Shown here in pieces: positions 1 to 62,755 of a DNA stretch of 64,000 nucleotides. Below the pieces are notes generated by a model. The model did no database searches and was not told the DNA's origin. It saw only the letters and a program-made list of their open reading frames with translations. Source of the stretch: Sapria himalayana (lineage: Eukaryota > Streptophyta > Magnoliopsida > Malpighiales > Rafflesiaceae); NCBI GenBank assembly GCA_029783825.1, contig JAREIK010005402.1, positions 1 to 64,000 of the forward strand, written 5' to 3'. A program made the translations under genes and the position numbers. Position 1 is the stretch's first letter. Each line of letters starts with the position of its first letter.

Positions 1-2324
1 CTAACAGACTAAGCCAAAGTGTACCCCTATGTGTTGAAATAGCTAGTTGTGAGGATGTTATTTATATTGATTATTGTAATTACTCCTAAAATATCTCTCA
101 TGCACACACTCAAAGTAATTTTTTAAAACATAGTTCACCTCTAAAAAAATAACCACCTTGTAGCTTATTAGAACAACCTAGCCCCTTGGTGGGTTATGTA
201 GGGCAAGAAGTATGGGCTCTCTTTCAATCAAGAATCAAAAAATTTATTTTATTGGCATGTCTAAGCCTTTTTTTATCCTCATGGATATGAAAATTATCAT
301 TTCTTTCTTTTTATATTAAATGAGTTATGTATACAAGCTCACAATACCCAAAAAGGTATAAATGAATCATATTCAAATGTATAAAAGGTTTTAATTATTG
401 CTCAAAATATTAGTCTTGCATATTGACACTTGAGGTCACAAATCAAATGAAAGAGCCATAGTAATATTTCCAATCCGAAGAATTTTAGCTATAGTAAGTT
501 AAAGAGTAGTACTCGAGCTTTAACTATTTCTAGGTTCAACACCTTTGCTCTCGAGGAATGTCCAACGTTACAATCATTCTAGTGCAATGACTTTACAATA
601 TAAAGATAAAATGCACAAGCTATGGTCATATCCAATACTATGACCCAGTATTATAGTGATTAAATATGTATTCATGATCATTCTTTGTTCCATAACAATA
701 TGTTCAACTAAGAGACACAAGTTATGGCATATTCTAATCGATATGATTTTGGGTTCTAAAGACAAAATATACAATCATGACGATTGCAAATGCTACAATA
801 ATCTAAAGCAAGAAAGAGACATAATCCATAACTCACCCTTGAGTCATGAATTTGTGTTAAATATACAAAAAGATAAATCTGTGACATTCCTAAAAGTTGT
901 GAAATTCAATTTAAATTTAACACTTAGTCATTTGATTAAAAAAGTGCAAAACATTAGATTTAGGAGTTAGGGTTTATGGATTATGGTTATAGTTTATGGT
1001 TTAAGGTTTAGGATTTAAAGTTTAGGGTTTATGGTTTTTTTTTTGTATTTTTGTTGGAAAAACACACATTATTTATCATTTAGGCACACAACTTACAAGA
1101 GACTAAAAGGATGACTAATTTAGGCCACCCTACCAATTTCTCTGCACCTTAATGATTCTATGCATAAAATAAATAAAAAAACATAATGCCTAATAATTCC
1201 AAGCAACGAATACAACTAAAATCAACTGGCATTCCCGGACTTCAGAGTTGGCATTGAGCCATTATGCGCACTACGTCCTTTCCATTTGGATTTGTCCAAG
1301 CCTTTTTGAGGAACCTGAATGATGCACCATATTAATACTATGCAAATATAAGATTGTGCATGTGTGTGGCAAGCAACATCAAGCATTTGCCTATGTCATT
1401 GCTATGCAATATAATACATGTAAAACTGAATACCCATAAATCAACAAGTCTATATATACGGCACTTTGTCAATTCATTCTCACCTCTGAATTACACATTC
1501 TTTTGCTCGAATGATTCTCAAAAGAGTATCTCTTGGGTTAGAATGCTTCCTTCTCGAGCTCCAAGAAGTGGCTGTATGTTGCACCGACAAAATATCAAAA
1601 AATATGCATGCATCGGTGTGCATGTGTGATGAGGTCCATCTCATAGTCTGATTATCTATCCATACAACCAAGCTAGAATACAATTAAAATTACAAAATGC
1701 TATAAAGATGGGTCTTCTGCTCCCGGGAGTGTAGCATTGCCTAATGTGTATTTACAAAATGCATTAGTGGGCCCTACTTAGAAATACTCATGGGTCCAGT
1801 TGCCCTCATTTCATGCTACATAGAGAACAGACAAGATTGTGTGTGTGAGTATGTCATTATCCGTCTCTACAAGTACATGGTGCATACAAAGTCCAAAATA
1901 CAAATAAGACTACAAACATAAACTACAAGTTTGAATCTTTCGCTCCCGTGTGGCTGGTCTGGACTCCATTGCTCACTAGCACTGCTTGATGATGCTTAGG
2001 ATTTTGTCGGGTCTCCAATTAATCATGGATTACCCGTTACTCCTATTGGGCGATGGTTGGGTGGCCCTCTATGCTGCCTGATAAGTCAGTGGGACCCACT
2101 CCTAGCTACTCCTAGGTTTACTCCCGACCACTTTGCTCGGTCTCGTCAGTTGTCTATATGTTATCATCCCGGCTTGCTAGTGGGGCCCTATACAAGCTGG
2201 TGGCCCATACTTCTGGCTGCTTCCAGGACTTGCTAGCCCCTCTAAATGCCCACCAAAATGGAAAAGAATATGTGCACGTGTGTACTATGGTCCATCACTA
2301 TGTGTGTGTGGTGCAGCATTATCA
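1..2324 (+). repeat. Block U, left copy: non-satellite terminal arm
   Basis: This is about 2.3 kb of ordinary-composition DNA, clearly richer in G and C than the satellite, especially from about 1200 to 2324. It is repeated in inverted orientation at 60281-62616. The first 120 bp align at about 91% by hand count, with scattered substitutions and 1-bp indels. Short open frames occur (574-774 minus, 1354-1629 plus, 2158-2340 plus), but none resembles a known protein, and their partners in the right copy differ in length. No transposase, reverse transcriptase, tRNA or rRNA is visible. The block ends sharply at ...cattatca, after which satellite begins with gggtttaggagtttag. Its left limit is unknown because it touches the window edge. 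Confidence 0.8.
958..1036 (+). repeat. Degenerate telomere-like repeat tract in U (left)
   Basis: About 80 bp consists of loose variants of the plant telomere unit TTTAGGG, such as ttagggtttatgg, aaggtttagg and tttagggtttatgg. They are spaced at roughly 7 bp, with many changes to TTTATGG and TTTAAGG. The G-rich strand is the plus strand. A matching C-rich tract lies in the inverted copy. This is a decayed interstitial tract, not a functional telomere. Confidence 0.6.
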
Positions 2325-3233
2325 GGGTTTAGGAGTTTAGTAATTTAAGTATTTTGGTATTTTGTAGTTTATAGGTTTTATTTAAATAATTAAATAACAA
2401 AAAATTATTTTTATTATTTTTTCTAATTTTCAAGGTTATAACTATTGAAAATATTATAATTTTTATTTTTTTTCAAATGTTAATACAATATGTAATTATA
2501 ATATTCATAAAGATTATATTTCATGTAAATTAAATATAAATAATTTTATTTATCGATATTATTAAAATGATCATAAAATAGATTAATAAACTATTATTAA
2601 TAAGATAGATATTAATTAAAATATATTTGCAAAACCTAAAACAATTAAAAATCAAAGTAAAATATATTACAATATAATAATTTTTTATTTTTAAATTTTT
2701 GATTCTTTTTATAATCTTATAAATTTTTATGATGAAGATAAATTATTTAAATTATAGTTGTCTCATTCATAATTTTATTTTGCAATTAATATTTTTATAA
2801 AAATAAACTAATAATAATTAAAATGAATATTGAAATTATAATGAATACAAATAAAAATGAGATTTATGATTAATTATTTAGGGTATAAAGGTCTAATGGT
2901 TTAAGTATTTATAAGTTTAGGAGTTTAGTGATCTAAGTGTTTAGGCATTTAGTAGTTTATATGTTTTATTTAAATAAAGAAATAACAAAAAAATTATTTT
3001 TCCAATTTTTTATCAATTTTGAAGTTTACCTTTATAAATATAATTTTTAAATTTTTTTCAAATGTGAATACAATATTTAGTTTTAATAAGCTTAATAGTT
3101 ATATATCATTAAAATTAAAATAAACAATTTTATTCATAGATATTAATAAACTAAATATAAATATAAATATAAAATGATCAAAAAATAAATTAATAAACTA
3201 TTATTTATTGATAGATATTTATATATTATTTAT

Positions 3234-3276
3234 AAATACTTAAACCTTTAAAGATGGTTTAAATGTTTAAGTATTT
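3234..3276. repeat. Micro-inversion hairpin in the satellite (left arm)
   Basis: An imperfect 19-bp inverted repeat surrounds the 5-bp loop gatgg: aaatacttaaacctttaaa at 3234-3252 and tttaaatgtttaagtattt at 3258-3276, pairing at 18 of 19 positions. The left stem is a short piece of satellite in reverse orientation within an otherwise forward monomer, as expected from a template switch during replication. The same event is present at 59325-59367 in the opposite arm. Confidence 0.85.
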
Positions 3277-4337
3277 AATGGTTTTGTGGTTTAGGGGTTT
3301 TGGAGTTTAATGATTTAAGCATTTAGGCATTTAGTAGTTTATAGGTTTTATATAAACAATAAAATAACAAAAAATTTATATTTGTGATTTTATTTCATTT
3401 TCAAAGATGATAACCTTTAAAAATATAATAATTTTTAAATTATTTTCAAATGCAAATATAATATTTAGTTATAATAATCTTTATAATTATATATCATGTA
3501 AATTCAATATAAAAATTTTATTGATAAATATTCTAATAATGATCAAAAAATAAATTAATAATCTAATATTAATAAGATAAATATCAATTAAAATATATTA
3601 CAAAACCTAAAATAATTTAGAAGAAAAGCAAATTATATTACTATATAATAATTTTTTGTATGGAAATTTTTTTTTCTTTTAAAAAGTGTATCTATAATTT
3701 TTTGATGAAAAATAATTTATATAAATTATTCTTGTCTAGCTCAAATTATTTTGTAATTTATATTTATATATAAAAAAAACAAATAAATAATAAAAATGAA
3801 TATTTAAAATTATAATGAAAAAAATGAGATTTATTATTTATTATTTAGGGATATTATTTTAATTTAAATTAGATCTGTCTCACTAATAAATTATTTTGTA
3901 ATTAATATTTCTATAAAAATACACTGATAAATAATTAAAATAAAAATTTAAAATTATACTGAATAAAAATTAAAATGAGATTTATGAATTATTATTAATG
4001 TTTACCAGTTTAATGGTTTAAGTATTTAGAAGTTTTATCATTTAGGAGTTTAGCGATTTATGTTTTTAGGTATTTAGTGGTCTATAGGTTTTATTTTACA
4101 ATGAAATAACAAAAAAAATATTTTTGATTTTTTTTTTCACATTTTTAAAGGTTATAACCTTTGAAAATATAATAATTTTAAATTTTTTAAAAAATGTGAA
4201 TACAATATATAGTAATAATAATCATTATAATTATATATAATAAAAACTAAATATAATTAATTTTATTGATAGATATGATATCAATTATCAAAAAATAAAT
4301 TAATATGATATTATTAATATGATAGATAAAAATTAAA

Positions 4338-4404
4338 ATATAATTAAAAAACCTAAAATGATTCAAAAAAAATATAATTAAAAAACCTAAAATGATTCAA
4401 AAAC
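4338..4404 (+). repeat. Short tandem duplication (about 34 bp) in a monomer
   Basis: The segment containing taattaaaaaacctaaaatg is repeated once with a period of 34 bp (taatta starts at 4341 and 4375). It is a local slippage duplication in one monomer and I see no wider role. Confidence 0.75.
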
Positions 4405-5411
4405 AATGTAAATTTTATTACTAAATAATAATTTTTTTTTTTAGTTTTTGCTTCTTTTTATAATCTTATATTTTTTTTGATGAAAAATAAATGATTTATA
4501 TTATATTTTATCACTCATAATTTATTTTGTCATTAATATTTCAATATATTATTTAAATTATATTTAAGGTTTACGAGATTAAAGGTTTAAGTATTTAAGG
4601 GATTCGGGGTTTAGGAGTTTAGAGATTTATGTGTTCAGGCATTTAATGGTTTATAAGTTTTATTTAAACAATGATATAACAAAAAATTTAATTTTGTTAT
4701 TTTTTATCATTTTTGAAGGTAATAACCTTTGAAAATATAACAATTTTTAAATTTTTTATTTGTGAATACTATATTTAGTTATGATAATCTTAATAATTAT
4801 ATATCATATAAATTCAATATAAACAATTATATTGATAGATATTATATTAATGATCAAAAAATAAATTAATAAACTTTTATTAAAAAGAAAGATTTTATTT
4901 AAAATATATTTGCAAAATGTAAATTTATTCAAAATCAAAATAAAATATATTACTAAATAATAATTTATTTGCTGTTTTGCTTCTTTTATTAAGTTTATAT
5001 TTTTTTTATCAAAATTAAATTATTTAAAGTATATATGTCTTCCTCAAAATTTATTTTTAATTTATAATTCTATAAAAATAAACTAATAAATAATTAAAAT
5101 GAATATTTAAAACTATAATGAATACAAATAAAATAGAGATTTATTATTTATTATTTAGGATATATTATTTTATTGTTTTAAGTATTTACGTGTTTTGGGG
5201 TTTAGTGATTTAAGTGTTTAGGCCTTTAGTGATTTATAGTATTTATTTAAAGAATAAAAAAATAAAAAATTTAATTTTTTGATTTTTTTTAAATTTTTGA
5301 AGGTTATAACCTTTGAAAATAAAATAATTTTTAATTTTTTTAAAATGTGAATATAATATTTAGATATAATAATTTTAATAATTATATATAATGTAAACTC
5401 AATATAAATAA

Positions 5412-5811
5412 TTTTATTAATACATATTATAATAATGATCAATAAAAAATTAGTAAAATATTTTTAATAAGAATGCTATAAATTAAAATATAATTGCAAA
5501 ATCTAAAATGATTCAAAAAAAAAATAAAATATATTACTAAATAATAAATTTTTGTTTTTAAAATTTTGCCTCTTTTTATAAGGATATATTTTTTTTTGAT
5601 GAAAAATAAATTAAAATATTTTATTAATACATATTATAATAATGATCAATAAAAAATTAGTAAAATATTTTTAATAAGAATGCTATAAATTAAATTATAA
5701 TTGCAAAATCTAAAATGATTCAAAATAAAAATAAAATGTATTACTAAATAATAAATTTTTGTTTTCAAAATTTTGCCTCTTTTTATAAGGATATATATTT
5801 TTTTTGATGAA
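5412..5811 (+). repeat. Recent 207-bp tandem duplication within a monomer
   Basis: The stretch starting tacatattataataatg at 5421 is repeated from 5628, giving a period of 207 bp. The copies differ at only a few positions, for example attaaaatat against attaaattat and aaaatatatt against aaaatgtatt. This is far less divergence than between neighbouring monomers, so the duplication is young. It explains the unusually long monomer step that ends near 6038. Confidence 0.85.
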
Positions 5812-8372
5812 AAATATATTATTTAAATTAGATTTATCTGACTAATAATTTATTTTTTAATTAATATTTCTATAAAAATAAACTAAGAAATAATTAAAAT
5901 AAAAATTTAAATTATACTTAATAAAAATTAAATTGAGATTTATGATTTTTTATAAATGTATACCTGTTTAATGGTTTAAGTATTTAGAAGTTTTATCATT
6001 TAGGAGTTAAGCAATTTATGTTTTTAGGCATTTAATGGTTTATAGGTTTTATTTAAACAATAAAATAACAAAAAAAATTGTTATTTTTTATCATTTTCAC
6101 AGGTTAAAACCTTTGTAAATATAATAATTTTAAGATTTTTTGAAATGTGAATACAATATTCAATTATAATAATATTAATAATTATATATCATATAAATTC
6201 AATATAAACAATTTTATTGATAGATAATATAATAATGATCAAAATTGAAATTAATAAACTATTAATAAAATGATTTATATTAATTAAAAAATATTTACAA
6301 AACACAAATTGATTCAAAATTAAAGTAAAATATATTTCTATATGAATTTTTAATTTTTAAATTTTTACTACTTTTATATGCGTAGATATATTATTTCATT
6401 AAAAATAAATTATTTAAATGATATTTGTCGCACTCCTAATTTATTTTGTAATAAATATTTCTATATAAATTAAACAATAAATAATTAAAATGATAATTTA
6501 AAATTATAATAAATAAGAATAAAAATTAGATTTATTAATTATTATGTAGTATATAGCGGTTTAATGGTTTATGTATTTAGGCATTATGAGGTTTAAATGT
6601 TTACTGATTTAATTATGTATGCATTTAATAGTTTATAGGTTTTATTAAAAAAATAAAATAATAAAAAATTTATTTTTATTATTTTTTGATATTTCAAAGG
6701 TTATAACATTTGAAAATATATAAATTTTTATATTTTTTTTAAATGTGAATACAATATTTAGTTATGATAATCATTATATTTATATATTAGATAAATTCAA
6801 TATAAACAATTTTATTGATAAATATTCTAATAATTATCAAAAATTAATTAATAATCTATTATTAATAAGATAAATATCAATTAAAACATAATTACAAAAC
6901 ATAAAATGATTTAGAAGAAAAGCAAAATATATTACTATATAATAATTTTTTTTTGAAATTTTATTTTCGTTTAAAAAGTTTATTAATTATTTTTTGATGA
7001 AAAATAATTTATATAAATTATATTTGTCCTAACTCGATTTATTTTGTAATTAATATTTATATATAAATAAACAAATAAATAATTTAAATTAATATTTAAA
7101 ATTATAATGAAAAAAATGAGATTTATTATTTATTATTTAGGACTACGGGTTTAATTTAACTTAGATCTCTCTCACTACTAATTTATTTGGTAATTAATAT
7201 TTCTATAAAAATAAAACTTATAATAAGTAAAATAAAAATTGTAAATTATACTGAATAAAAATTAAAATGAGATTTAAGATTTATTATTAATGTATATCCA
7301 GTTTAATAGTTTAAGTATTTAGAGGTTTGTCATTAGGAGTTTAGCGATTTATGTTTTTAGGCTTTTAGTGGTTTATAGTTTGTATATAAAAAAATAAAAT
7401 AACAAAAAAAATAATATATTTTGTATCATTTTCATAGTTATAACCATTGAAAATATAATAATATTTACAATTTTTTGCAAAACTGAATACAATATTTAGT
7501 TTTAATATTATTAATAATTATATATCATATAATTTCAATATAAACAATTTTATTGATAGATAATATAATAATGATCAAAAATTAAATTAATAAACTTTTA
7601 ATAAAAAGATAGATATTAATTAAAAAATATTTACAAAACCCAAATTGATTCAAAATTAAAGTAAAATATATTATTAGATAATAATTTTTAATTTTTAAAT
7701 TTTTACTTTTTTTAGAACCGTATAATTTTTTTATTAAAAATAAATTAATTAAATTATATTTGTCGCTCTGATACTTTATTATGTAATAAATATTTCAATA
7801 AAAATAAACAAATAAATAATTAAAATGAATATTTAAAATTATAATAAATAGAAATAATAATTAGATTTATTAATTATTAAGTAGTATATAGCAGTTTTAT
7901 GGTTTATGTATTAAGGCATTATGGGGTTTTGGAGTTTACTAATTTAACTATGTATGCATTTCGTGGTTTATAGGTTTTATTTACGAAAATAAATAAAAAA
8001 ATTATTTTTATTATTTTTTGATATTTTCAAAGATTAATAACCTTAGAAAATATAATATTTTTAAATTTTTTTAAATTGAATTAAATATTTATTTATAATA
8101 ATTCATAATAATTATATATCATATAAATTCAATATAAACAATTTTATTGATAGATATTCTAATAATTATCAAAAAATAAATTAAAATCTATTATGAATAA
8201 GATTGATATTACTTAAATATAATATCAAAACCTAAAATGATTCAAAAGCAAAGCAAAATATATTACTTAATATAATTATTTGTTTTTAAATTTGTATTCT
8301 TTTTATAAGCTTATTCTATTTTTGATGAAAAATAATTTTATAAATTATATTTTTAACTCATAATTTATTTTA

Positions 8373-8376
<4 letters not shown>

Positions 8377-8422
<46 letters not shown>
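8377..8422 (+). repeat. (TA)n microsatellite, about 23 units
   Basis: An uninterrupted TA run lies inside a satellite monomer of the type containing taactcataatttatttt. A shorter run sits at the homologous place of another monomer at 29579-29604. Related monomers near 23035 and 38885 have only traces of it. Confidence 0.95.
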
Positions 8423-8423
<1 letters not shown>

Positions 8424-9654
8424 CTAAACAAACAAAATGAATTTTTTAAATTAAAATTAAAACAAATAAAAATGAGATATATTAATTATTATTTAGGGGA
8501 TACCCATTTAAAACGATTATCTATATAGGGTATTGCGAGATTTTGTTGTTTAGTTATTTAATTGTTTAGGCATTTAGTGATTTATAAGGTTTTATTTAAA
8601 CAATGAAATAATAATAAAAAATATTTTATTTGTTTTTCACATGTTCAAAGGTTATAATCTTTGAAAATATAATAATTTTAAAATTTTTTCAAAAGTGAAT
8701 ACAATATTTAGTTATAATAATTATTAATATTATATTATCATATAAATTAAATATAAATATATTTATTGATAAATATTCAATTAATGATCAAAAATAAATT
8801 AATAATCTATTATTAATAAGATAGATATCAATTTAATATAATTACAAAACCTAAAATGATTCAGAAAAATGCAAAATATATTACTATATACTAATTTTTT
8901 GGTTTGAATTTTTTTTAAAGTGTATCTATATTTTTTATGAAAAAATAATTATATAATTATATTTGTCCTAACTCAATTTATTCTGTAATTAATAATTATA
9001 TAAAAATAATGAATAAATAATTAAAATGAATATTTTAATTAGAATGAAACAAATAATATTGAGATTATTATTATTAGGGTATATACCGGTTTAAAATGAT
9101 TATCTATTAAGGGTTTTCGAGATTTAGGAGTTATTAATTTAGTAATTAGGCATTTATGGGTTTATAGGATTTATTAAAATAATGAAATAATAAAAAAATT
9201 ATTTTTGTTATTTTTTCACATTTTCAAAGGTTATAACATTTGAAAATAAAATAATTTCAAAATTTTTTAAAAATGTGAATAAAATATTTAGTAATATTAA
9301 TTATTATAATTATATATATATAAACTAATTTAAATAATTTTATTGATAGATATGATATCAATTATCAGAAAATAAATTAATAAACTATTATTAATATGAT
9401 AGATATAAATTAAAATATAATTAGAAAATCTAAAATGATTCAAAATCAAAGTAAAATTTATTACTAAATAATAATTTTTTGTTTTTAAATTTTTACTTCT
9501 TTTTATAATATTATATTTTTTTTATTAAAAGTAAATTATTAATATTATATTTGTCTGACTAATTATTTAATTTATAATTAATATTTATTTAAAAGATAAA
9601 CTAATAAATATTTAAAATTATAATGAATACAAATTAAAATGAGATTTAAGATTT

Positions 9655-9659
9655 ATTAT
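9655..9659 (+). repeat. 5-bp target site duplication (left) of the solo LTR
   Basis: attat directly precedes the TG of the LTR at 9660 and is repeated directly after its CA at 10235-10239. Removing the LTR and one copy restores gatttattat-atatggtatacc, which matches a normal satellite junction such as gatttattatatgtagtata near 28480. Confidence 0.8.
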
Positions 9660-10234
9660 TGCTGTATATGTAATTTATTTTTTGATAATCTCTTTGTATA
9701 ACCAAATATTTTTTCTTTTTTAATATTTTCATGTAAGTGCAGGAAAGGAAATATTAGAGGCTGGGGATGCAGCAGTAGCACAATAACGAGGTCTCGCTAA
9801 CTGGACAGCATGCCAATTGGAGCAGAGCCTGACCCATCCTCATGATCCGACCTACTCCGGTTAAATGAACTGAGAGAAATTTAATATCAATGTTTTGTTA
9901 TTTTATTTGCGGGTGGCTGTTTTTGGACTCGTGGAACTTATTCATCGACTCTCTCTATTCTCTCTGAGCAATTTATCGTGACTATTCTGTGTGCTACATA
10001 CTGTAAGACATTTTCTGTTGCTTTAATCTGTAACACATAAGCATTTTCTGGTTAGATTTAGCTAGTTCGTACTGAGGACTAGCGAACCACATTATTTTCG
10101 GTGTTTATTTATTGTTTTTTGATTCCTATCATGTGCATGGTTGCTGAATTGGGATATATATATTGCATGTTTTCTGTTATTTCTGTATTTCTGTATTCTC
10201 AATATCACTACCATGGAAGCACAATTGCCCAACA
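9660..10234. mobile_element. Solo LTR (575 bp) of an LTR retrotransposon
   Basis: This is the longest non-satellite insertion in the left array apart from the hAT. It begins TGCTGTATATG and ends CCCAACA, so it has the canonical TG...CA ends with a short imperfect inverted repeat (TGCTG/CAACA). A 5-bp direct duplication, attat, flanks it on both sides. Its base composition is much less AT-rich than the surrounding satellite. No primer-binding site, gag or pol, and no second LTR, are present. It is therefore best read as a solo LTR left by recombination between two LTRs. The TGTTG/CAACA-like ends are common in Copia elements, but superfamily and orientation cannot be assigned from the LTR alone. 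A non-autonomous element with similar ends is less likely. Confidence 0.8.
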
Positions 10235-10239
10235 ATTAT
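10235..10239 (+). repeat. 5-bp target site duplication (right) of the solo LTR
   Basis: attat follows the terminal CA of the LTR and matches 9655-9659. Satellite resumes at once with atatggtataccag. Confidence 0.8.
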
Positions 10240-13200
10240 ATATGGTATACCAGTATTAATGGATCCATTATTTAGGGGTTTTGTCGTTTAGGAGGTTTAG
10301 CAATTTATGTTTTTAGGCAAGTTAGAGGTATATAGGTTTATTTATGTAATAAAAATAAAAAATTTATTTTGATTTTTTTTAGATGTTCAAAGTTTATAAC
10401 CTTTAAAAATAAAATAATTTTTAAAATCATTTTGAAATGTGAAACCATGTATAATTATATTAATCTTATTAATTATATATCATATAAATTCAATATAAAT
10501 AATTTTAATGATAGATATTATAATAATGATCAAAAATTAAATTAATAAACTATTATTAATAATATAAATAATAATTAAAATATATTTATATAACCCAAAA
10601 AGATTCAAAATCAAATAAAATATATTACTAAATAATAATATTTAATTTTTAATTTTTTCCATCTTTTTATAAGCTTAAATTTGTTTATGATTAAAAATGA
10701 TTTATTTAAATAAAATCTGTCTCACTCAAAATTTATCTTGTAATTAATTTTTCTAAAAATAAACATATAACTAATTAAAATGAATATTTAAAATTATAAT
10801 AAATAGAAATAAAAATGAGATTTATTATTTATTAAGTAGTATACAGCTGTTATAAGGTATATGTATTTAGGGGTTTCGTGTTATATGAGCTACTGGTTTA
10901 AGTAAGTAAACATTTAGCGGTCTATAGGTTTTATTTAAAAAAGAAAAAACAAAAATTTATTTTTTGTATTCTTTCTCATTTTTTAAGATTAAAACCTTTG
11001 AAAATATAATAATTTTTAATTTTTTTTCAAAAGTGAATACAATATTTATTATAATAATAATAATAATTATATATTATATCATATAAATATCAATATAAAC
11101 AATTTTATTGATAGATATTCTAATAATTATTAAAAAATAAATTAAAATTCTATTATCAATAAGATTGATATTCTATATTGGGGTATAGGTATTTTGTGAT
11201 TTAGTGATATAAGTGTTTAGGTATTTAGTGATTTATACGTTTTATTTAAATAATGAAATAACAAAAATAAAATATCTTTTTTTATTTTTTTCACATGTTC
11301 AAAGGTTATAATCTTTGAAAATATAAAATTTTAAACTTTTTTCAAAGGTGAATACAATATTTAGTTATAATAATTATTAAATTTATATATCATATAAATT
11401 CAATATAAACTATTTTTATTGATAAATATCTAATAATGATCAAAATAAATAATAATTATATTAATAAGTAGATATCAATTAAAATATAATTAACAAACCT
11501 AAAATGATTCAGAAACAAACAAAATATATTACTATATAATATTTTTTGTTTTTAACTTTTTTATTCTTTATTAAGTTATCTATATTTTTTGTTGAAAATT
11601 AATTTATATAAATTATATTTGTATAACTTATAATTTATTTTGTAAATTAATATTATATAAAATAAACAAATAATAATTAAAATGAATATTTAAAATTATA
11701 ATTAAAAAAATAAAATGAGATTTATTATTTATTATTAGGATATACATGTTTTAAAAATTATATATTTATGGTTTTCGAGATTTAGAAGTTATTGATTTTA
11801 AGTATTAAGCATTAATGTTATAGGTTCTATTCAAACAATGAAATAACAAAAAAATTATTTTTGATATTTTTTCAAATTTTCAAAGTTTATAACATTTGAA
11901 AATATAATAATTTTAAAATTTTTTAAAAATGTAATACAATATTTAGTATTAATAAATATTATAACTATATAATATAAAACTAAATATAAACAATTTTATT
12001 AATAGATATTATATTCAATTATTAAAAAATAAATTAATAAACTATTATTAATATGAGAGATATAAATTAAAATATATTAAAAAACCTATAATAATTCAAA
12101 ATCAACGTAAAATTATTATTAAATAATAATTTTTTTTAGTTTTGCATTATTTTATAAGCTTATATGTTTTTTTGATGAAAATATATTATTTAAATTATAT
12201 TTGTCACTCATAATTTATTTTGTAATAATATTTCTATAATTATTTAAATTATATTTAAGGGTTACGAGTTAAAAGGTTTAAGTATTTAGGGGCTTCGGGG
12301 TTTTGGAGTTGAGATATTATGTATTAGGCATTTAATGGGTTATAGTTTTATTTAAACAATGATAGAACAAAAAATTTTTTTTGTTATTTTTTCTCAATTT
12401 TGAAGGTTATAAACTTTAAAAATATATCAATTTTTAATTTATTTTATATGTGAATACTATATTTAATTATGATAATCTTAATAATTATATATCATATAAA
12501 TTCAATATAAATAATTATATTGAAAAATATATATTAATGATCAAAAATTAAATTAATAAACTATTATTAATAAGATAGATATTATTTTAAATATATTTGC
12601 AAAACATAAATTTATTCAAAATCAAAGTAAAATATATTACAAAATAATACATTACTTGATGTTTTGCCTCTTTTTATAAGTTTATATTTTTTGTTATTAA
12701 AATTAAATTATTAAATTATATTTTTCTTCCTCATAATAATTTTTAATTTATAATTCTATAAAATAAACTAATAAATAATTAAAATGAATATTTAAATTAT
12801 AAAGAATACATATAAAATAGAATTTATTATTTATTATTCAGGATATACTAGTTTAATAGGTTTAAGTATTTAGGGGTTTGGGGTATTAGTGATTTAAGTG
12901 TTTAGGCCTTTAATGATTTATAGTTTTTAGTTAAAGATGAAAAAATAAAAAATTTAAATTTTGATTTTTTTTTTAATTTTTGAAGGTTATAACCTTTGAA
13001 ATTATAATAATTTTAATTTTTTTTAAATGTGAATATAATATTCAGTAATAATAATCTTAATAATTATATATAATATTAACTCAATATAAAGAATTTTATT
13101 AATAGATATTATAATAATGATCAATAAAAATTAATAAACTATTATTAATAAGAATGATATAAATTAAAATATAATTGCAAATCAAAAATGATTCAAAATA

Positions 13201-36091: not shown

Positions 36092-36099
36092 GCATTTAG
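36092..36099 (+). repeat. 8-bp target site duplication (right) of the hAT element
   Basis: gcatttag is identical to 15357-15364. Satellite resumes with tggtttataggttttattt, completing the monomer interrupted at 15364. Confidence 0.85.
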
Positions 36100-50690: not shown

Positions 50691-53600
50691 TATTTTTATA
50701 GAAATATTAATTACAAATAAAATTATTAGTGAGACAGTTATAATTTAAATAATTTATATTTCATCAAAAAAAATATAAGCTTATAAAAATAGGTATAATT
50801 TTAAAAACAAAAATTTATTTTTTAGTAAAATATTTTATTTTAATTTTGTATCATTTTATATTTTGCATATATATTTTAATTTATATCATTCTTTTTAATA
50901 AAAGTTTATTAATTATTTATTGATCATTATTATAATATATATTAATAAAATTATTTATATTGATTTTACATTATATATAATTATTAAGATTATTATAACT
51001 AAATATTTTATTCACATTTAAAATGAATTAAAAATTATTATATTTTCAAAGGTTATAACCTTCAAAAATTAAAAAAAAACAAAAAATTAAAATATTTATT
51101 TTTTAATTCTTTAAATAAAAACTATAAATCACTAAAGGCATAAACACTTAAATCACTAAACCCCAAAACACCTAGATGCCTAAACCATTAAAACTGTATA
51201 TCCTGAATAATAAATAATAAATCTCACTTTTATTTGTATTCTTCTAATATTAATTATTCATTTTAATTATTTTTTAGTTTATTTTTATATAATTATAAAT
51301 TAAAAAATATATTATGAGGAAGACAAATATAATTTAAATTATATACTTTTAAGAACAAAAAATATAAACTTATAAAAAGAAGCAAAACATAAAAAACATT
51401 ATTATTTAGTAATTTATTTTACACTAATTTTGAATAAATTTAGGTTTTGCAAATATATTTTAAATAATATCTATTTTATTTATGATAGTTTATTAATTTA
51501 TTTTTTGATCATTAATATAATATCTATCAATATAATTCTTTATATTGAATTTATATGATATATAATTATTAATATTATCAAAACTAAATATTATATTCAC
51601 ATTTCAAAAAATTTTAAATATTAATTTATTTTTAATGGTTATAACCTTTGAAAATCAGAAAAAAATCTAATATTTTTTTGTTTATTTTTATTATAAAAAT
51701 AAAACCATTAAACCACTAAATGCCTAAATACATAAATTGATAAACTCCTAAACGACAAAACTCCTAAATAATCAAACCATTAAACCGGTATACCTCATAT
51801 AATAAATCATAAATCTCATTTTAATTTGTATTCATTATAATTTTAATTATTTATTAGTTTATTTTTTATAGAAATTTTAATTACAAAATAAATAATGAGG
51901 TAGACAAATATAATTTTAATAATTTATTTTTAATCAAAAAAAAAGCATATAAAAAGAAGTAAAAATTTAAAAACAAAAAAGTATTATTTAGTAATATATT
52001 TTACTTTGATTTTGAATCGTTATATAATTGTTTTGCAATTATATTTTAATTGCTATCAATCTTATTAATAAAAGTTTATTAATTTTTTATTTGTTCATTT
52101 TTATAATATCTGTCAATAAAATTACTTATATTCAATTTAAAATGTCTTATAATTATTAAGATTATTAAACTACATATTATATTTACATTTAAAAAATATT
52201 TAAAAATTATTATATTTTCTAAGGTTATAACCTTCAAAAATGATAAAAAATCACAAAAATAATTTTTTTATTATTTTACTATTTAAATAAAACTTATAAA
52301 CCACTAAATTCCTAAACATTTAAATCTTTAGACTCCTAAACACCCAAATCCCCTAAATACTTAAACTATTAAACCTATATAACCTAAATAATAAATAATA
52401 AATTTCATTTTTATTTGTTTTCATTATAATTTTAAATATTCATTTTAATTATTTTTTAGTTTATTTTTATAAAACTATTAATTACAAATTAAATATTGAG
52501 TGAGACATATATAATTTAAATAAATTATTTTTTATCAAAAAAAAAAGCTTATAAAAATAAGCAAAATTTCAAAAATTTAAAATTTTATTTAGTATATAAT
52601 TTAATTTTATTTTGAATTATTTTGGTTTCTGCAAATATATTCTAATTAATATCTATCTTATTAATAATAGTTTATTATTTTATTTTTTGATCATTATAAT
52701 AATATATATTAATAAATTTTATTATATTGAATTTACAAAAAATATAATTTTTAAGATTATTATTACTAAGTATTGTATTCATATTTTAGAACTATTAAAA
52801 AATTATTATATTTATAAAGGTCATAACATTTGAAAATCACAAAAATTCATAAAAATAAATTTTTTGTTATTTAGTTGATTAATTAAAACCTATAAACACC
52901 TAAATATGTAAACATATAAATCAATAAACTCATTAACCCCAAAACCACAAAAAACTTAAACAATTAAATACTTATACCCTAAAAAATAAATCATAAATCT
53001 CATTTTTATTAGTATTCATTAAAATTTTAAAAATACATTTTAATTATTTATTAGTTTATTTTTATAGAAATATAAATTAAAAAATAAATTATTAGTGAGA
53101 CAAATATAATTTAAATATTTTATTTTTCATAAAAAAATATATAGGCTAATAAATGGATACAAAAATTTAAAAATTTAAAATTAATATTTCGTAAAATATT
53201 TCACTTTGATTTTGAATCATTTTAGGTTTTCAAAATATATTTTAAACAATATTTATCTTATTAATAATTGTTTATTACTTTTATATGATCATTATTTAAA
53301 TATATATTAATAAAATAGTTTATATTGAATTTATATGATATATAATTATTATGATTATTATTACTTCATATTATATTCACTTTACAAAAAAAATTATAAA
53401 TTATGATATTTTCAAAGGTTATAACATTCAAAAATGAGAAAAAATAACAAAAATAAATTTTTTGTTATTTTATTATTTATATAAAACCTATAAACCACTA
53501 AATGACTAAATTCTAAAATGACTAAACTCCTAAACCCCGAAGCCCATTAATACTTAAATCATTAAATTATTATAGTCCAAATAATAAATCATAAATCTAA

Positions 53601-56600
53601 TTTTTATTAGTATTCATTATAATTTTAAATATTCATTTTAATTATTTATCTGTTTATTTTTATAGAAATATTAATAACAAAATAAATTATTAGTGCGAAA
53701 TATATAGTTTAAATAATTTATTTTTCATTAAAAAAATGCTGATAAAAAAAAGCAAATTTTTAAAAATAAATAATTATTATTTAATAATATATCTTATTTT
53801 GACTTTGAATCATTTTAGATTTTACAATTATATTTTAATTTATATCATTATAATTAATACTAGTTTATTAATTTATTTATTGATCATTATTATAATATCT
53901 ATCAATAAATTAATTTATATTGAGTTTACATTATATATAATTATTAAGATTATTATAACTAAATATTATATTCACATTTAAAAAAAATTAAAAATTATTA
54001 TATTTTCAAAGGTTATAACCTTCAAAAATTAAAAAAAATTAAAAAACATCAAAAAATTAATTTTTTTGTTTTTTCATTCTTTAAATAAAAACAATAAATC
54101 ACTAAAGGTCTAAACAATTAAATCACTAAACTTCTAAACCACAAAACACCTAAATACTTAAACCATTAAACCGGTATATCCTAATAATAAATAATAAATC
54201 TCAATTTTATTTTTATTCATTATAATTTTAAATATTCATTTTAATTATTTATTAGTTTATTATTATAGAATTATAAATTACAAAATAAATTATGAGTATG
54301 ACAAATATAATTTAAATAATTTATTTTTAATAACAAAAATATAAACTTATTAAAAAAGCAAAACATTAAAAAAATTATTATTTAGTAATATATTTTACTT
54401 TGATTAGAATAAATTTAGATTTTGCAAATACTTTTTAAATAATATCTATTATATTAATAATAGTTTATTAATTTATTTTTTGATCATTATTATAATACCT
54501 AGCAATTTAATTATTTATATTGAATTTAAATGACTTATATATTATAAGATTATTATAATAAATATTATATTTACATTTGAAAAAAATTTAAAAATTATTA
54601 TATTTTCAAAGGATATAACTTTCAAAAATTACAAAAAATAAAAAAATAAATTTTATGTTATATCATTGTTTAAATAAAACTTATAAACCACTAAAGCCCG
54701 AAACAGTTAAATCTCTAAACTTTTTAACACAAAAGCCCCTAAATAATTAAATCTTTAAACTCGTAAACCTTAATTATAATTTAAATAATTTATTAAAATA
54801 TTAATGAAAAAATAAATTATGAGTGATATAAATTTAATTTAAATAATTTATTTTTGCTCAAAAAAAAATATAAGCTTATAAAAAAATCAAATACTAAAAA
54901 ACAAAAATTATTATTTAGTAATAAATTTTACTTTGATTTTGAATAATTTTAGGTTTTGCAATTATATTTTAATTTATATCTATCATATTAATAATAGCAT
55001 ATTAATTTATTTTTTGATAATTGATTTAATATCTATCAATAAAATTTTTTATATTTTGTTTATATTATATATAATTATAATGATTATTATTACAAAATAT
55101 TGTATTTACATTTTTAAAAAATTTTAAAATTATTAAATTTTCAAAGGTTATAACCTTTGAAAATGTGAGAAAATATCAAAATAATTTTCTTGTTATTTCA
55201 TTATTTAAATAAATCTTATCAACCAATAAAATGCCTAAACACTTAAATCAATAACCCCTAAATTTCTAAATCTTAAAAAGATATTTATTTTAAACTATTA
55301 TACCTTAAATAATAAATAATAAATAATAAATCACAATATTTTTTTTTTCATTAAAATTTAAATTATTCATTTTAATTATTTATTCATTATTTTTATATAA
55401 ATATTAATTACAAAATAAATTATGAGTTTGAGAAATATAATTTATATAAATTATTTTTCTTCGAAAAATATAGATAAACTTATAAAAAGAATAAAAAATT
55501 TAAAAACTAAAATTTAATTTATAGTAATATATTTTGCTATCCTTCTGAATCATTTTAGGTTTTGTAATTATAGTTTAATTGATATCTATCTTATTAATAA
55601 TTGTTTATTAATTTATTTTTTGATCATTATTAGAATATTTATCAATAAAATTGTTTATATTGAATTTATATGATATTTAAATATAATGATTATTATAACT
55701 AAATATTGAATTCACTTTTGAAAAAAATTTTAAAATTATTATAATTACTTAGGTTATAACCTTTGGAAATATGAAAAAATAATAAAAATAAATTTTTTGT
55801 TATTTTATTTTTTAAATAAAAGCTATAAACCACTAAATGCATACATAGTTAAATGAGTAAACTTCTAAAACCTGTAATGCCTAAATACATAAACCATTAT
55901 ACCGCTATATACTACTTAATAATTAATAAATTGAATTTTTATTTCAATTTATTATAATTTTAATTATTTATTAGTTTATTTTCATAGAAATTTTTTTACA
56001 AAATAAATTATGAGTGCGACACATATAATTTAAATAATTTATTTTTAATCAAAAAATATATATACGCTTTTTAAAGAAGTATAAAACAAGTATTATTAAA
56101 AATTAAAAATTATTATCAACTAATATATTTTACTTTAATTTTGAATCAATTTGGGTTTTGTAAATATTTTTTAATTAATATATATATTATTATAAATTGT
56201 TTATTAATTTATTTTTTGATCATTATTATAATATATATCAATAAATCTGTTTATATTTATCTTATATGATATAGAATTATTAAAATTATTATCACTAAAT
56301 ATTGTATTCAAATTTCTAAATATTTTTAATATTATTAAATTTTCAAAGATTATAACATTTGAAAATCACAAAAAATTACAATTTTTTTTTATTTTATTGT
56401 TTAAATAAAACTTATAAATCACTAAATGCCTAAAAACATAAATTGCTAAACTCATAAACGACAAAACCTCAAAATACTTAAATCATTAAACTGGTATACA
56501 TTAATAATAAATCATAAATCTCATTTTAATTTTTATTCAGTATAATTTTAAATTTTTATTTTAATTATTTATCAATTTATTTTTACAGAAATATTAATTA

Positions 56601-59298
56601 CAAAATAAATTTTAGTGAGACAGATATAACTTAAATTAAACTGGTATACCCTAAATAATAATAATAAATAATAAATCTTATTTTTTTCATTATAATTCTT
56701 AATATTCATTTTAATTATTAATTTTTTATTTTTATATAAATATTAATTAAAGAATAAATTATGATTTAGACAAATATAATTTATATAAATTATTTTTAAT
56801 CAAAAAATATAGATAAATTTTTTGAAATAAAAAAAATCAAAACTAAAAATTATTATATAGTAATATATTTTGTGTTGCTTATGAATCATTTTATGTTTTG
56901 TAATTATATTTTAATTGATATTTATCTTATTAATAATTGATTATTAATTTATTTTTTGAACATTATTTGAATATTTATCACTAAAATTGTTTATGTTGAA
57001 ATATGATATATAAATATATTGATTATTATAACTAAATATTGAATTCACTTTTGAAAAAAATTTGAAAATTATTATATTTTAAAAGGTTATAACCTTTGAA
57101 AATATCAAAAAATAATAAAAATAAATATTTTGTCATTTTATTTTTTAAATAAAACCTATAAAACACTAAATGCATACACAATTAAATCAGTAAACACCTT
57201 AACCTCATAATACCTAAATACATAAACCATTAAACTGCTAGATAATACATAATAATTAATAAATCTAATTTTAATTTCTATTTATTATAGTTTATATATT
57301 CATTTTAATTATTTATTAGTTTATTTTTATAGAAATATTTATTATAAAATAAATTATGAGTGCGACAAATATAATTAAAATAATTTATTTTTAATCAAAA
57401 AAATATATACGCTTATAAAATAAGTAAAAATTTAAAAATTAAAAATTATTATCCAGTAATATATTTTACTTTAATATTGAATCAATTAGGGTTTTGTAAA
57501 TATTTTTTAATTAATATCTATCTTATTATTAATAATTTATTAATTTAATTTTTGATCATTATTATAATATCTATCAATAAAATTTTTATATTGAATTTAT
57601 ATGATATATAATTATTAATATTATTATAACTATATATTGTATTCACATTTAAAAAATTGTAAATATTATTATATTTTCAAAGGTTATAACATATGAAAAT
57701 GATAACAAATTATAAAAAATATTTTTATTATTTTATTTTTTTATATAGAACCTATAAACCACTAAAAGCCTAAAAACATAAATCGCTAAACTCTTAACGA
57801 AAAAACCTATAAGTACTTAAACCATTAAACTTATATACATTAATAATAAATCTTAAATCTCATTTTAATTTTTATTCAGTATAATTTTAATTTTTATTTA
57901 AATTATCTATCAATTTATTTTTATAGAAATATTAATTACAAAATAAATAATTAGTGAGACAGATCTAATTTAAATTAGACCAGTATATCGTAAATAATAA
58001 ATAATAAATCTCAATTTTTTTTCATTTTAATTTTAAATATTCAAATTTAATTATGTATTTGTTTATTTTTATATAAATATTAATTACAAAATAAATTATG
58101 TTTTACACAAATATAATTTATATAAATTATTTTTCATCAAAATAATATAGATAAACTATTTAAAAGATAAAAAATTTGAAAACAAAAAATTATTATATAG
58201 TAATGTATTTTGCTTTGCTTCTGAATCATTTTAGGTTTTATATATTTTAATTGATATCAATCTTTTTTTTAATTGAAATCTATCGTATTAATAAAAGATA
58301 ATAAATTTATTTCTTGATCATTATTAATAATATTTATTAATAAAATTGTTTATATTGAATTTATATAATATATAAATATAAAATTATTATAAATAAAGAT
58401 TGTATTTAATTTTTTAAAAAAATTTAAAAATTATTATATTTTGTTAGTTTATAACATTTGAAAATAACAAAAAATAATAAAAATATATTTATTGTTATTT
58501 TATTTTTTAAATAAAACCTATAAACCACTAAAAGCCTAAAAACATAAATTGCTAAATTTTTAAACGACAAAACCTCTAAATACTTATCCCATTAAATTGG
58601 TATAAATTAATAATAAATCATAAATCTCATTTTAATTTTTATTCAGTATAATTTAAATTTTTATTTTAATTATTTATTAGTTTATTTTTATAGAAATATT
58701 AATCACAAAATAAATTATTAGTGAGACAGTTCTAATTTAAATTAAAATGGTATCCTTAAATAATAAATACTAAATCTCATTTTTTTTCATTATAATTTTA
58801 AATATTCATTTTAATTATTTATTTGTTATTTATATATAATATAAATTACAAAATAATTTGATCTAGACAAGAATAATTTATATAAATTATTTTCTTCAAA
58901 AAAATTATAGATACACTTTTAAAAGAAAAAAAAATTTCAATACAAAAAATTATTATATAGTAATATATTTTGCTTTGCTTCTAAATTATTTTAGGTTTTG
59001 TAATTATATTTTAATTGATATTTATCTTATTAATATTAGATTATTAATTTATTTTTTAATCATTATTAGAATATTTATCAATAAAATTTTTATTTTGAAT
59101 TTACATGATATATAATTATAAAGATTATTATAACTAAATATTATATTTTCATTTGAAAATAATTTAAAAATTATTATATTTTTAAAGGTTATCATCTTTG
59201 AAAATGAAATAAAATCACAAAAATAAATTTTTTGTTATTTTATTGTTTATATAAAACCTATAAACTACTAGATGCCTAAATGCTTAAATTATTAAACT

Positions 59299-59322
59299 CC
59301 AAAACCCAAAACCCCAAAACCC
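59299..59322 (-). other. Potential G-quadruplex motif (minus strand)
   Basis: The minus strand carries tracts of 3, 4, 3 and 2 G separated by TTTT spacers (plus strand CC, CCC, CCCC and CCC at 59299, 59305, 59312 and 59320). This fits a two-tetrad quadruplex. It arose from the G-rich monomer segment by expansion and is absent at the matching place of the left arm (about 3285-3305). Confidence 0.6.
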
Positions 59323-59324
59323 TT

Positions 59325-59367
59325 AAATACTTAAACATTTAAACCATCTTTAAAGGTTTAAGTATTT
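59325..59367. repeat. Micro-inversion hairpin in the satellite (right arm)
   Basis: aaatacttaaacatttaaa at 59325-59343, loop ccatc, then tttaaaggtttaagtattt at 59349-59367. This is the inverted counterpart of 3234-3276, and it proves that this stretch was duplicated after the micro-inversion arose. Confidence 0.85.
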
Positions 59368-60280
59368 ATAAATAATATATAAATATCTATCAATAAATAA
59401 TAGTTTATTAATTTATTTTTTGATCATTAATATATTTATATTTATATTTAGTTTATTAAGATCTATCAATAAATTGTTTATTTTTAATTTACATGATATA
59501 TAATTATTAAGTTTATTATAACTAAATATTGTATTCACATTTGAAAAAATTTTAAAAATTATAATATTTATAAAGGTTATAACTTTCAAAATTGATAAAA
59601 AATTTGAAAAATAATTTTTTTTTATTTCATTATTTAAATAAAACTTTAAACTACTAAATGCCTAAACACTTAAATCAATAAACTTCTAAACTCCTAAATA
59701 CTTAAACCATTAAACCGGTATACCCTAAATAATTAATCATAAATCTTATTTTTATTTGTATTCATTATAATTTTAATATTCATTTTAATAATTTATTAGT
59801 TTATTTTTATAGAAATATTAATTGCAAAATAAAATTATGAATGAGACAAATATAATTTAAATAATTTATCTTCATCTAAAAATTTATAAGCTTAAAAAAG
59901 AATCAAAAATTTAAAAATAGAAAATTATTATTTAGTAATATATTTTACTTTAATTTTAAATTGTTTTAGGTTTTGCAAATATATTTTAATTAATATCTAT
60001 CTTATTAATAATAGTTTATTAATCTATTTTATGATTAGTATTATAATATCGATCAATAAAATTATTTATATTGAATTTACATGATATTTAATTTTTATAA
60101 TTATTAAAATTAAATTTTGTATTAACATTTGAAAAAAATTAAAAATTATAATATTTTCAATGGTTATAACCTTGAAAATGAGAACAAATCATAAAAATAT
60201 ATATTTTTTATTTAATTATTTAAACAAAAGCTATAAACCACAAAATACCTAAATATTTAAATTACTAAACTCCTAAACCC

Positions 60281-62755
60281 TGATACTACTGCACCACATA
60301 CACATAGCGACGGACCATAGTACACACGGGCACATATTCTTGTCCATTTTGGTGTAGCATTTAGAGGGGCCAGCAAGTCCTAGAAGCAGGCAGAAGTATC
60401 GGCCATGAGCTTGTAGAGGGCCCCACTAGAAAGTTGGGATGATAACATTTAGACAACTGACAAGACCGAGCAAAGTGGTCGGAAGTAAACCCAGGGGTAG
60501 CTAGGAGTGAGTCCCACTAGCCCTATCAGGCAGCATACAGGGCCACCCAACCATCGCCCAACAGGAGCAGCGGGTAATCCATGATTATTTGGAGAGGCTT
60601 CAAAATCCCAAGCATCACCAAGCAGGGCAAGTAAGCAATGGAGTCCAGACCAGCCACACGAGAGCGAATGATTCAAACTTATAGTTTATGTTTGTAGTCT
60701 TATTTGTATTTTGGACTTTGTATGCACCATGCACTTGTAGAGAGGGATCATGACATACTCACACACACAATCTCGTCTGTTCTCTATGTAGCAAGCAATG
60801 AGGGCAACTGGACCCATGAGTATCTCTAAGTGGGGCCCACTAATACATTTTGTAAATAAACATTAGGCGATGCTACACTTCCAGGAGCAGAAGACCCATC
60901 TTTATAGCATTTTGTAATTTTACTTGTATTCTAGATTGGTTGTACGCGTAGATAATTAAATTATGAGATGGACCTCATCACACATGCACACCGATGAATT
61001 CATATTTTTTGATATTTTGTCGGTGCAGCATACAGCCACTTCTTGGAGCTCGAGGAGGAAGCATTCTAACCCAAGAGATACTCTTTTGAAAATCATTGAA
61101 ACAAAAGAATGTGGAATTCAGGGGTGAGAATGAATTGACAAAGTGACGTAGATATGGACTTGTGGATTTTTGGGTATTCAGTTATACATGTATTCCATTG
61201 CATAGCAATGACATAGGCAAACGCTTGATGCTGCATGTCACACACATGCACAATCTTATATTTGCATAGTTTTAATATGGTGCACCATCCAGGTTCCTCC
61301 CAAAGGCTTGGACAAATCCGATTGGAAAGGATGCAGCGCGGATAATGACTCAATGAAAACTCTGAAGTCCGGGAATGCCAGGTTATTTTAGTTGTATTCG
61401 TACGCTTGGAATTATTAGGCATTATGTTTTTTTATATATTTTATGCTTAGAATCATTAAGGTGCATAGGATTTGGTGTGCTGGCCAAATTAGTTAGCTTT
61501 TTAGTCTCTTGTAAGTTTTGTGCCTAAATGATAAATAAAGCGTGTATTTTCCAAAAAAAAAGAACAAAAAAAAACCATAAACTCTCAACTTTAAATCCTA
61601 AACCTTAAACCATAAACTATAACCCTAACCAATAACCCCTAAATCCTAAATCTCATGTTTTGCACTTTTATAATCAAATGACTAAGTGTTAAATTTAAAT
61701 TGAAATTTCAACTTTTAGGAACGTCACAGATTTATCTTTTTGTATATGTTACACAAAGTCATGACTCATAGGGTGAGTTATTGATTCAGTCATTTTCTTG
61801 CTTTAGACTATTGTAGCATTAGCAATGGTCATGATTGTATATTTTGTCTCTAGAACACAAAATCATATCGATGAGAATATGCCATAACTTGTGTCTCTCT
61901 GTTGAACATATTGTTTTGGCACTAAGAATGATCATGAATACATATTTAATCACTATAATACTGGGTCACAGTATTGGATATGACCATAGCTGGTGCATTT
62001 TATCTTTATATTGCAAAGTCATTGCACTTGGAATGATTGTAACTTTGGACATTCCTCAAGAGCAAAAGTCATGACCCAATAAATAGTTAAAGCTCGAGTA
62101 CTACTCTTTATAACTTTCTATAGCTAAAATTCTTGGGATTGGAAATATCACTATGGCTTTTTCCTTTGATTTGTTACATTAAGTGTCAATATGCAAGACT
62201 AATATTTTGAGCAATGATTAAAACCTTTTATAAATTTGAATATGATTCATTTACACCTTTTTGGGTATTATGAGCTTGTATACATAATTCATTTATTATA
62301 AAAAAAAGAAATGATACTTTTCATACCCATGAGGATATAAAAAAAAGGCTTAGACATGCCAATAAAATAAATTTTTTGATTCTTGATTGAAAGAGAGCCC
62401 ATACTTAATGCCATGATCAAACCACCCTAGGGTTAGTTTGTTCTAATAGGCTACAAGGTTGTAATTTTTTTAGAGGTGAACTATGTTTTTAAAAAATTGC
62501 TTTGAGTGTGTGCATAAGAGATATTTTAGAAGAAATTACAATAATCAATATAAATAGCATCCTCAACAACTCGCTATTTCAACACATAGGAGTACAACTT
62601 TGGTATAGTCTGTTAGCGTACATGTGTCAAATTAACTTTGATAGCAAAGTGATTCAACATCAAATATGATGAGACATAATTGAGATAATGTAAAAGCTTC
62701 TATTATTTTGGTTAGAGCTTTAGCAATCATTCTAGAGTTGAGAGAGGAACAAAAT
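60281..62755 (-). repeat. Block U, right copy, inverted
   Basis: The part 60281-62616 is the reverse complement of 1-2324, with scattered differences. A further 139 bp of non-satellite sequence (62617 to about 62755, cgtacatgtgtcaaatt to gagaggaacaaaat) has no partner inside the window. Satellite in the same reverse orientation lies on both sides, so U interrupts the array here. On the minus strand the satellite stops at ...aattattctgaataatt and restarts at gggtttaggag, so about 70-80 bp of monomer are missing. No target duplication is visible. Short open frames (60449-60676 minus, 61093-61422 minus, 61835-62074 plus) have no recognisable product. Confidence 0.8.
61571..61655 (-). repeat. Degenerate telomere-like repeat tract in U (right)
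   Basis: C-rich counterpart of 958-1036, with words such as aaccctaacc, aatcctaaacc and aacccctaaatcc on the plus strand. It shows that the tract was present before the two U copies separated. Confidence 0.6.

What the first reader, a model, noticed from the sequence alone, without database searches (positions are those of the whole stretch)
1..62616. A 62.6-kb inverted, foldback-like structure built from satellite DNA
Unique caps (U) face each other in inverted orientation at the two ends, and the satellite between them points inward from both sides. Known foldback transposons have long terminal inverted repeats rich in tandem repeats, but usually measure a few to some tens of kb. Either this is an exceptionally large foldback element, or a satellite domain underwent an inverted duplication. 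Both would be unusual for an array with 585-bp monomers.
Basis: partly seen in the sequence, partly recalled or inferred. Interest (0 to 1): 0.85.

Follow-up and report, generated by a model that had tools for sequence, protein, structure and literature searches.

The report
Plant satellite array with inversion junction
What looked like a giant 62-kb foldback transposon is a stretch of multi-copy plant satellite DNA whose repeats flip direction once, at a short palindrome that most of the repeats carry; the matching "caps" are two of many copies of a block embedded in the satellite.

Summary
The opposed U blocks and the orientation change are real; the 62.6-kb element is not. The window is the first 64 kb of a 160-kb contig, so position 1 is an assembly end and 62,616 is only where that cut base falls in the second U. 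U runs on to about 62,764, and satellite continues beyond it in unchanged orientation. U is embedded in satellite and co-oriented with it in 12 of 12 copies examined, so an opposed pair only means that a strand switch lies between two copies.

That switch (43,248-43,261) is off centre (41 kb / 17 kb). The half-monomers meeting there are 80% identical, which is background. Each side has its own unbroken relative elsewhere on the contig (92%), and both share with the junction 23 bp of a palindrome that is 28 bp long in the consensus. So this is an inversion-type join of two different array positions, not a mirror duplication. It recurs on 8 contigs at 95-100%. None of five further switches nearby uses this palindrome.

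Foldback transposon: rejected. Best reading: a plant higher-order satellite remodelled by segmental duplication and inversion, here assisted by a palindrome (inferred).

The parts
1..2304 (+). left copy of block U, truncated on its outer side by the contig end; inner edge joins satellite at profile position 150
2305..43274 (+). satellite in + orientation (595-bp monomers, about a dozen recurring monomer types), interrupted by insertions
9668..10211 (+). 0.55-kb insert; relatives (87%) at C5378 158405-158973 and on C9126
15365..17753 (+). 5' part of a decayed hAT transposon (starts TAGGGCTACTCACGGGAC after satellite octamer GCATTTAG); one stretch matches PF14372 hAT-like_RNase-H
34733..36091 (+). 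3' part of a hAT copy (one stretch matches PF05699, dimerisation region), followed by GCATTTAG
39285..43270 (+). end of the + arm; inverted relative of contig 65473-69465 (91.9%), where the sequence runs on unbroken
43248..43261 (.). strand-switch junction at the palindrome AAGGTTATAACCTT; the + profile match ends at 43274 (position 304), the - match begins at 43241 (position 298)
43241..46062 (-). start of the - arm; direct relative of contig 103083-105895 (92.0%)
43241..60293 (-). satellite in - orientation
60294..62764 (-). right copy of U (about 2.47 kb), lying inside satellite (profile 102 | U | 156)
62765..64000 (-). satellite continuing past U in the same - orientation; apart from insertions the contig stays - to 131.8 kb

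Best explanation
This is part of a large AT-rich (about 13% GC), higher-order satellite array of a plant, with 595-bp monomers. Old insertions (block U, a hAT transposon, a 0.55-kb insert) became part of the array and were multiplied with it by segmental duplication (shown by shared flanks for U; by resemblance of flanks, judged by eye, for the hAT; inferred for the small insert). The orientation change at 43.25 kb is an inversion-type join between two different places of the array. It lies in a palindrome, 28 bp long in the monomer consensus, which makes the two strands identical over 23 bp here (shown by comparison with unbroken relatives of each side). The likely mechanism is repair or replication switching strands at this palindrome (inferred). 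The join is present on 8 contigs (shown); that it arose once and was then copied is inferred from its identical structure. On two contigs the shared segment is about 69 kb (shown); on the others only marker positions and 2.7-3.3 kb around the junction were seen. The opposed U blocks follow because every U examined is co-oriented with its satellite and a switch lies between these two.
For: Map and single switch in the window. Window = start of contig C5378; the U query gave 40 listed places, the scoring cap, of 9,341 candidates, some of them partial. U co-oriented with its satellite in 12 of 12 copies examined: 8 loci L001-L008 (L002 is the window's own left U) plus 3 further on C5378 and 1 further on C9126. 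U and neighbouring odd monomers shared at 88-97%. Same-orientation neighbouring U copies at 92334-94793 and 96462-98923. Junction half-monomers no more alike than random ones. Unbroken relatives of each side, 4.0 kb at 91.9% and 2.8 kb at 92.0%, both ending at the junction, sharing 23 bp AAGGTTATAACCTTTGAAAATAT with it. 28-bp consensus palindrome, next longest 12 bp; 207 sites within 6 mismatches in 160 kb, 22 of them exact, 0 in one shuffled sequence. Junction on 8 contigs over 299-301 of 301 bases at 95-100%, same architecture in 8 of 8, pairwise 95.6-98.7%. C9126 co-linear over 69 kb at 97.5-98.2%. U, hAT-truncation marker and junction at matching distances on C5741 and C8265. One LEAFY locus, against whole-genome multiplication as the source of 8 copies.
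Against: None of the five other switches seen on the two contigs uses this palindrome (one lies in a (TA)n palindrome), so a general role is unproven. The palindrome window ranks only 77th of 556 in conservation. Mirror-rank pairing about the junction gives the highest mean of 17 offsets (0.817 against 0.791-0.812), and only 8 of 60 rotations equal or beat the collinear chain score, a weak hint of residual symmetry. On C13193 and C1125 the marker-junction distance is about 4.7 kb shorter than in the window, so copies are not all co-linear. No raw reads were seen. One single-copy gene does not exclude that some satellite contigs are alternative haplotypes.
Confidence: 0.85

Rival explanations
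1. Giant foldback (TIR) transposon of about 62.6 kb with U as terminal caps.
For: Opposed U copies at 91.5%; U and the junction recur together on other contigs.
Against: The left end is a contig end. U lies in satellite in all 8 loci examined of 40 listed (outer side not visible in L001 and L002, which reach contig ends), also as same-orientation neighbours. The outer flanks are inverted relatives of each other (185 match, 15 mismatch; left flank taken from a copy on C5741), not short direct repeats. No ORF of 120 aa or more in U.
Confidence: 0.02
2. Inverted duplication of the satellite domain with its centre at 43.25 kb, later made unequal by deletions and expansions.
For: U plus about 2.2 kb of satellite is shared between arms. 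Mirror-rank mean identity is the highest of 17 offsets. 39285-43270 is an inverted copy of 65473-69465.
Against: Sequence next to the junction is at background identity, whereas a mirror duplication as young as the U pair would be expected to give about 91% (inference). The closest relatives of the two sides lie at different places. 8 of 60 rotations score as well or better.
Confidence: 0.1
3. Assembly artefact: a misjoin or inverted chimeric reads.
For: The contig begins inside U at the same base at which contig C9126 ends, so assembly breaks do occur in this repeat.
Against: Inverted chimeric reads would be expected to give near-identical arms; these are about 80%. The junction was assembled on 8 contigs with 95-100% identity. 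C9126 carries it within 69 kb that are about 98% co-linear.
Confidence: 0.03

Closest known systems
Pea centromere 6 satellite FabTR-10 (PMC10027222; passages seen)
   Same: Plant satellite arrays mostly of one orientation, one array containing an inverted portion, and a neighbouring pair explained by duplication plus inversion
   Different: Different satellite as far as the passages tell; no palindrome-located switch is mentioned in the passages seen
Tribolium madens TmSat1/TmSat2 macro-dyad symmetries (PMC13081366; passages seen)
   Same: Orientation switches inside satellite arrays at conserved, many-times-copied inversion sites; dyads of kb to tens of kb (longest 75 kb)
   Different: Thousands of copies of the inversion sites there; here 8 copies found, arms unequal and not mirror images next to the junction
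Cuscuta europaea CUS-TR24 heterochromatin (PMC8091179; passages seen)
   Same: Plant satellite fragmented by transposons, with segmental duplications and inversions in the authors' model
   Different: LINEs there inserted repeatedly at target sites; here the hAT copies look like one insertion multiplied with the array
Tetris foldback transposon of Drosophila virilis (PMC4079207; passages seen)
   Same: Inverted arms that contain tandem repeats
   Different: Discrete element with 8-10 bp target-site duplications; not met here

Membership tests
Foldback (FB-type) transposon | inverted termini that are real element ends | tested here: not met
   Left end is a contig end; satellite continues beyond the right U and outside the left U in copies L003 and L004
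Foldback (FB-type) transposon | target-site duplication | tested here: not met
   Outer flanks (left one taken from collinear copy L004) are inverted relatives of each other, not short direct repeats
Foldback (FB-type) transposon | dispersed copies bounded by both termini | tested here: not met
   U lies in satellite in all 8 loci examined of 40 listed, and occurs as same-orientation neighbours on C5378; the other 32 listed places were not looked at
Higher-order satellite DNA | head-to-tail monomers of fixed period | tested here: met
   Median spacing 595 bp, n=49; 296 profile matches in 160 kb
Higher-order satellite DNA | distinct monomer types recurring in order | tested here: met
   Same-type pairs 88-90% against 80% overall; multi-monomer runs shared. 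The unit length is not constant (lag table shows no single sharp period)
Higher-order satellite DNA | centromeric location or CENH3 binding (if claimed) | not testable with these tools
   no ChIP or FISH data
Macro-dyad satellite array (Tribolium type) | recurrent, conserved inversion sites | tested here: met
   One junction found on 8 contigs; five other switches were not tested for recurrence
Macro-dyad satellite array (Tribolium type) | roughly symmetric opposed subarrays forming a dyad | tested here: not met
   41 kb against 17 kb to U; half-monomers next to the junction at background identity

The most novel reading that the evidence does not exclude
The 28-bp palindrome of the satellite consensus is a built-in strand-switch site. 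It lets repair or replication flip array orientation, and such flipped junctions are then amplified as fixed parts of very large (60 kb or more) satellite units, giving a plant counterpart of the conserved inversion sites of Tribolium macro-dyads.
Probability: 0.25. Interest if true: 0.55.

Novelty: new member of a known kind. Interest (0 to 1): 0.3.

Why it matters
It replaces a claimed giant transposon by a readable series of ordinary rearrangements, and it gives an unusually clear strand-switch junction: unbroken relatives of both sides are present and the shared 23 bp can be read off. If switches prove enriched at the palindrome genome-wide, the question of how satellite arrays change orientation becomes countable from an assembly.

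Tried and rejected
Foldback element, mirror-type inverted duplication and assembly artefact: see rival explanations.

A single hAT split by a 17-kb satellite insertion was considered (two hAT parts sharing about 170 bp, GCATTTAG next to both). The two flanking half-monomers resemble different types, and relatives with both ends and similar flanks exist at C5378 119 kb and on C9126, so duplication plus separate truncation is simpler. Repeated targeted hAT insertion at GCATTTAG was set aside because the three 5' flanks (15 kb, 119 kb, C9126) resemble each other and the four 3' flanks (36 kb, 119 kb, 142 kb, C9126) resemble each other, judged by eye. This is as expected from one amplified insertion; two of the four 3' flanks read GCATTGAG.

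Rfam and tRNA scans gave nothing. Pfam gave nothing on the longest ORF alone nor on two of five stop-free hAT stretches; a third had only sub-cut-off matches. I do not claim that palindrome-located switches in plant satellites are undescribed; in the listings of searches I recognised no title describing one.
Full report
What the window is. It is the first 64,000 bases of contig C5378 (160,111 bp) in an unnamed 2.06-Gb, 18,497-contig assembly. One match to the plant LEAFY family (PF01698, 1 match of 2 candidates) and hAT domains in the window (PF14372, PF05699) mark it as a plant. The LEAFY reading frames look angiosperm-like to me (recollection, not tested).

Satellite. An iterated profile (585 positions) finds 117 pieces in the window and 296 in the whole contig. 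The spacing of complete monomers is 595 bp (median of 49, range 564-611). The 90 long monomers are 80.0% identical on average, but fall into types with 88-90% identity within type (12 types of three or more members at the chosen cut-off). Runs of types are shared, for example a 7.4-kb antiparallel match at 85.7%. Same-type identity does not depend on arm: ++ 0.883 (103 pairs), -- 0.895 (25), +- 0.889 (110).

Orientation. In the window the array is + up to 43274 and - from 43241 on. Apart from insertions it stays - to 131.8 kb, then switches at 131.8, 137.4 and 147.0 kb. The fetched 100 kb of C9126 repeat the window's switch and have two more, at 70.08 and 72.81 kb. That makes six distinct switches in 160 kb of C5378 plus 100 kb of C9126, of which about 70 kb are shared. 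Only the window's switch (with its C9126 copy) lies at the 28-bp palindrome; the one at 147.0 kb lies in a (TA)n palindrome; the other four lie at other monomer positions.

U. Block U (about 2.47 kb) lies in satellite (profile 83-102 | U | 149-156; some 50-70 monomer positions are missing at the site). In 8 of 8 loci fetched, of 40 listed places, it sits in satellite with the same inner neighbours; L002 is the window's own copy, and L001 and L002 show only the inner side. On C5378 it occurs four times, two of them as same-orientation neighbours about 4.1 kb apart. In all 12 copies examined U points the same way as its satellite. The two window copies share U (91.5%), the next four satellite pieces (92.2-97.2%) and a fifth (88.0%), then lose special similarity; I read them as relatives by duplication of one block. 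The sequence just outside U on the left, read from a copy on C5741, is the inverted relative of that on the right (185 matches, 15 mismatches), so no target-site duplication is seen.

The junction. The two half-monomers meeting at 43.25 kb are 79.9% identical; 75 half-monomers compared pairwise give 79.2 +/- 4.3%, and 36% of the 2775 pairs are at least as similar. Each side has an unbroken relative on the same contig: 39285-43270 matches 69465-65473 (4.0 kb, 91.9%, inverted) and 43241-46062 matches 103083-105895 (2.8 kb, 92.0%, direct). Near the junction the identities are 95.0% and 92.7% on the proper side and 75-76% on the other; both relatives share AAGGTTATAACCTTTGAAAATAT with the junction. 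The satellite consensus holds a 28-bp perfect palindrome there, the next longest being 12 bp. In 160 kb, 207 sites are within 6 mismatches of it, 22 exact, and none in one shuffled sequence. As a whole the palindrome is only moderately conserved (0.911 against 0.875 overall, 77th of 556 windows). Five of its G/C columns are 80-89% conserved, while G/C consensus columns average 69%; its first C is only 56%. On mirror duplication: pairing monomers by rank about the junction gives 0.817, the best of 17 offsets but close to the rest (0.791-0.812), and 8 of 60 rotations of the left arm give as good a co-linear chain. Shuffled orders do far worse, as expected from shared monomer order. This leaves a faint possibility of old symmetry.

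Copies. The 301-bp junction is present over 299-301 bases on 8 contigs (C5378, C9126, C13193, C14142, C5741, C1125, C8265, C16590) at 95-100% (40 of 1,903 candidates scored). 8 of 8 have the same + to - structure, pairwise 95.6-98.7% over 2.2-3.3 kb; three of them (C13193, C14142, C1125) depart from the window within about 1.5 kb on the right. C9126, reverse-complemented, is co-linear with C5378 for 69 kb at 97.5-98.2%; after a shift of about one monomer the match runs on at 99.4% to C9126's own extra switch at 70.08 kb. A marker at the hAT truncation (17640-17940) has 20 matches over 298-301 bases at 93-100%, on 19 contigs (40 of 3,129 candidates scored). U, marker and junction lie at matching distances on C5741 (118982, 136687, 162169) and C8265 (46481, 28977, 3939, reversed); U and marker on C12725, C1660 and C2929. 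On C13193 and C1125 the marker-junction distance is about 20.8 kb instead of 25.5. I infer that the junction was made once and copied within a large segment. One LEAFY locus argues against polyploid copies, but uncollapsed haplotypes cannot be excluded for satellite contigs.

How it most likely works. Shown: segmental copying of U with its satellite neighbours; an inversion-type join within a palindrome; presence of that join on 8 contigs. Inferred: at the palindrome the two strands are identical over 23 bp, so a broken end or a stalled copy can pair with the opposite strand of another monomer and continue in reverse; later duplication spread the result. Nothing seen suggests mobility of the 62.6-kb stretch as a unit.

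Comparison. Passages of the pea CEN6 paper describe an inverted portion of a satellite array and a duplication with inversion. Passages of the Tribolium madens paper describe conserved inversion sites in satellites. Passages on Cuscuta describe a transposon-ridden satellite with segmental duplications and inversions in the model. Chionographis centromere units mix forward and reverse arrays (passages). The finding is a further member of this kind, with an unusually legible junction.

Noticed in passing
G000 contig C2538, 72170-72471 (+) and 112594-112895 (-): The hAT-truncation marker occurs twice in opposite orientation about 40 kb apart, each about 20 kb from the midpoint; the window's junction is not listed there (40 of 1,903 candidates scored). 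A possible true mirror-image duplication.
   Followed up: no
G000 contig C3602, 200654-200955 (-): Carries the hAT-truncation marker, so the junction would be expected near 175-180 kb, but it is not listed there. Possible copy without the switch.
   Followed up: no
window 15365-17753, 34733-36091; C5378 119251-123847, 142041-145511; C9126: Five copies or parts of one hAT family at the same monomer site, with GCATTTAG or GCATTGAG at the preserved ends; similar flanks suggest one insertion multiplied with the array.
   Followed up: partly
window 1 (C5378 start) and C9126 end (129807): Two contigs that are about 98% co-linear stop at the same base inside U, a sign of an assembly break at a repeat boundary.
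   Followed up: partly
satellite monomer, profile about 125-230; window 967-1037: Run of degenerate telomere-like units (TTTAGNNN, roughly 8-bp steps) in the monomer consensus (by eye); U also holds a degenerate 7-bp telomere-like tract.
   Followed up: no
satellite consensus columns, 296 pieces of C5378: G/C consensus columns are much less conserved (0.69) than A/T columns (0.91), as C-to-T decay would give; the four G/C of the palindrome core hold at 0.83-0.89.
   Followed up: partly
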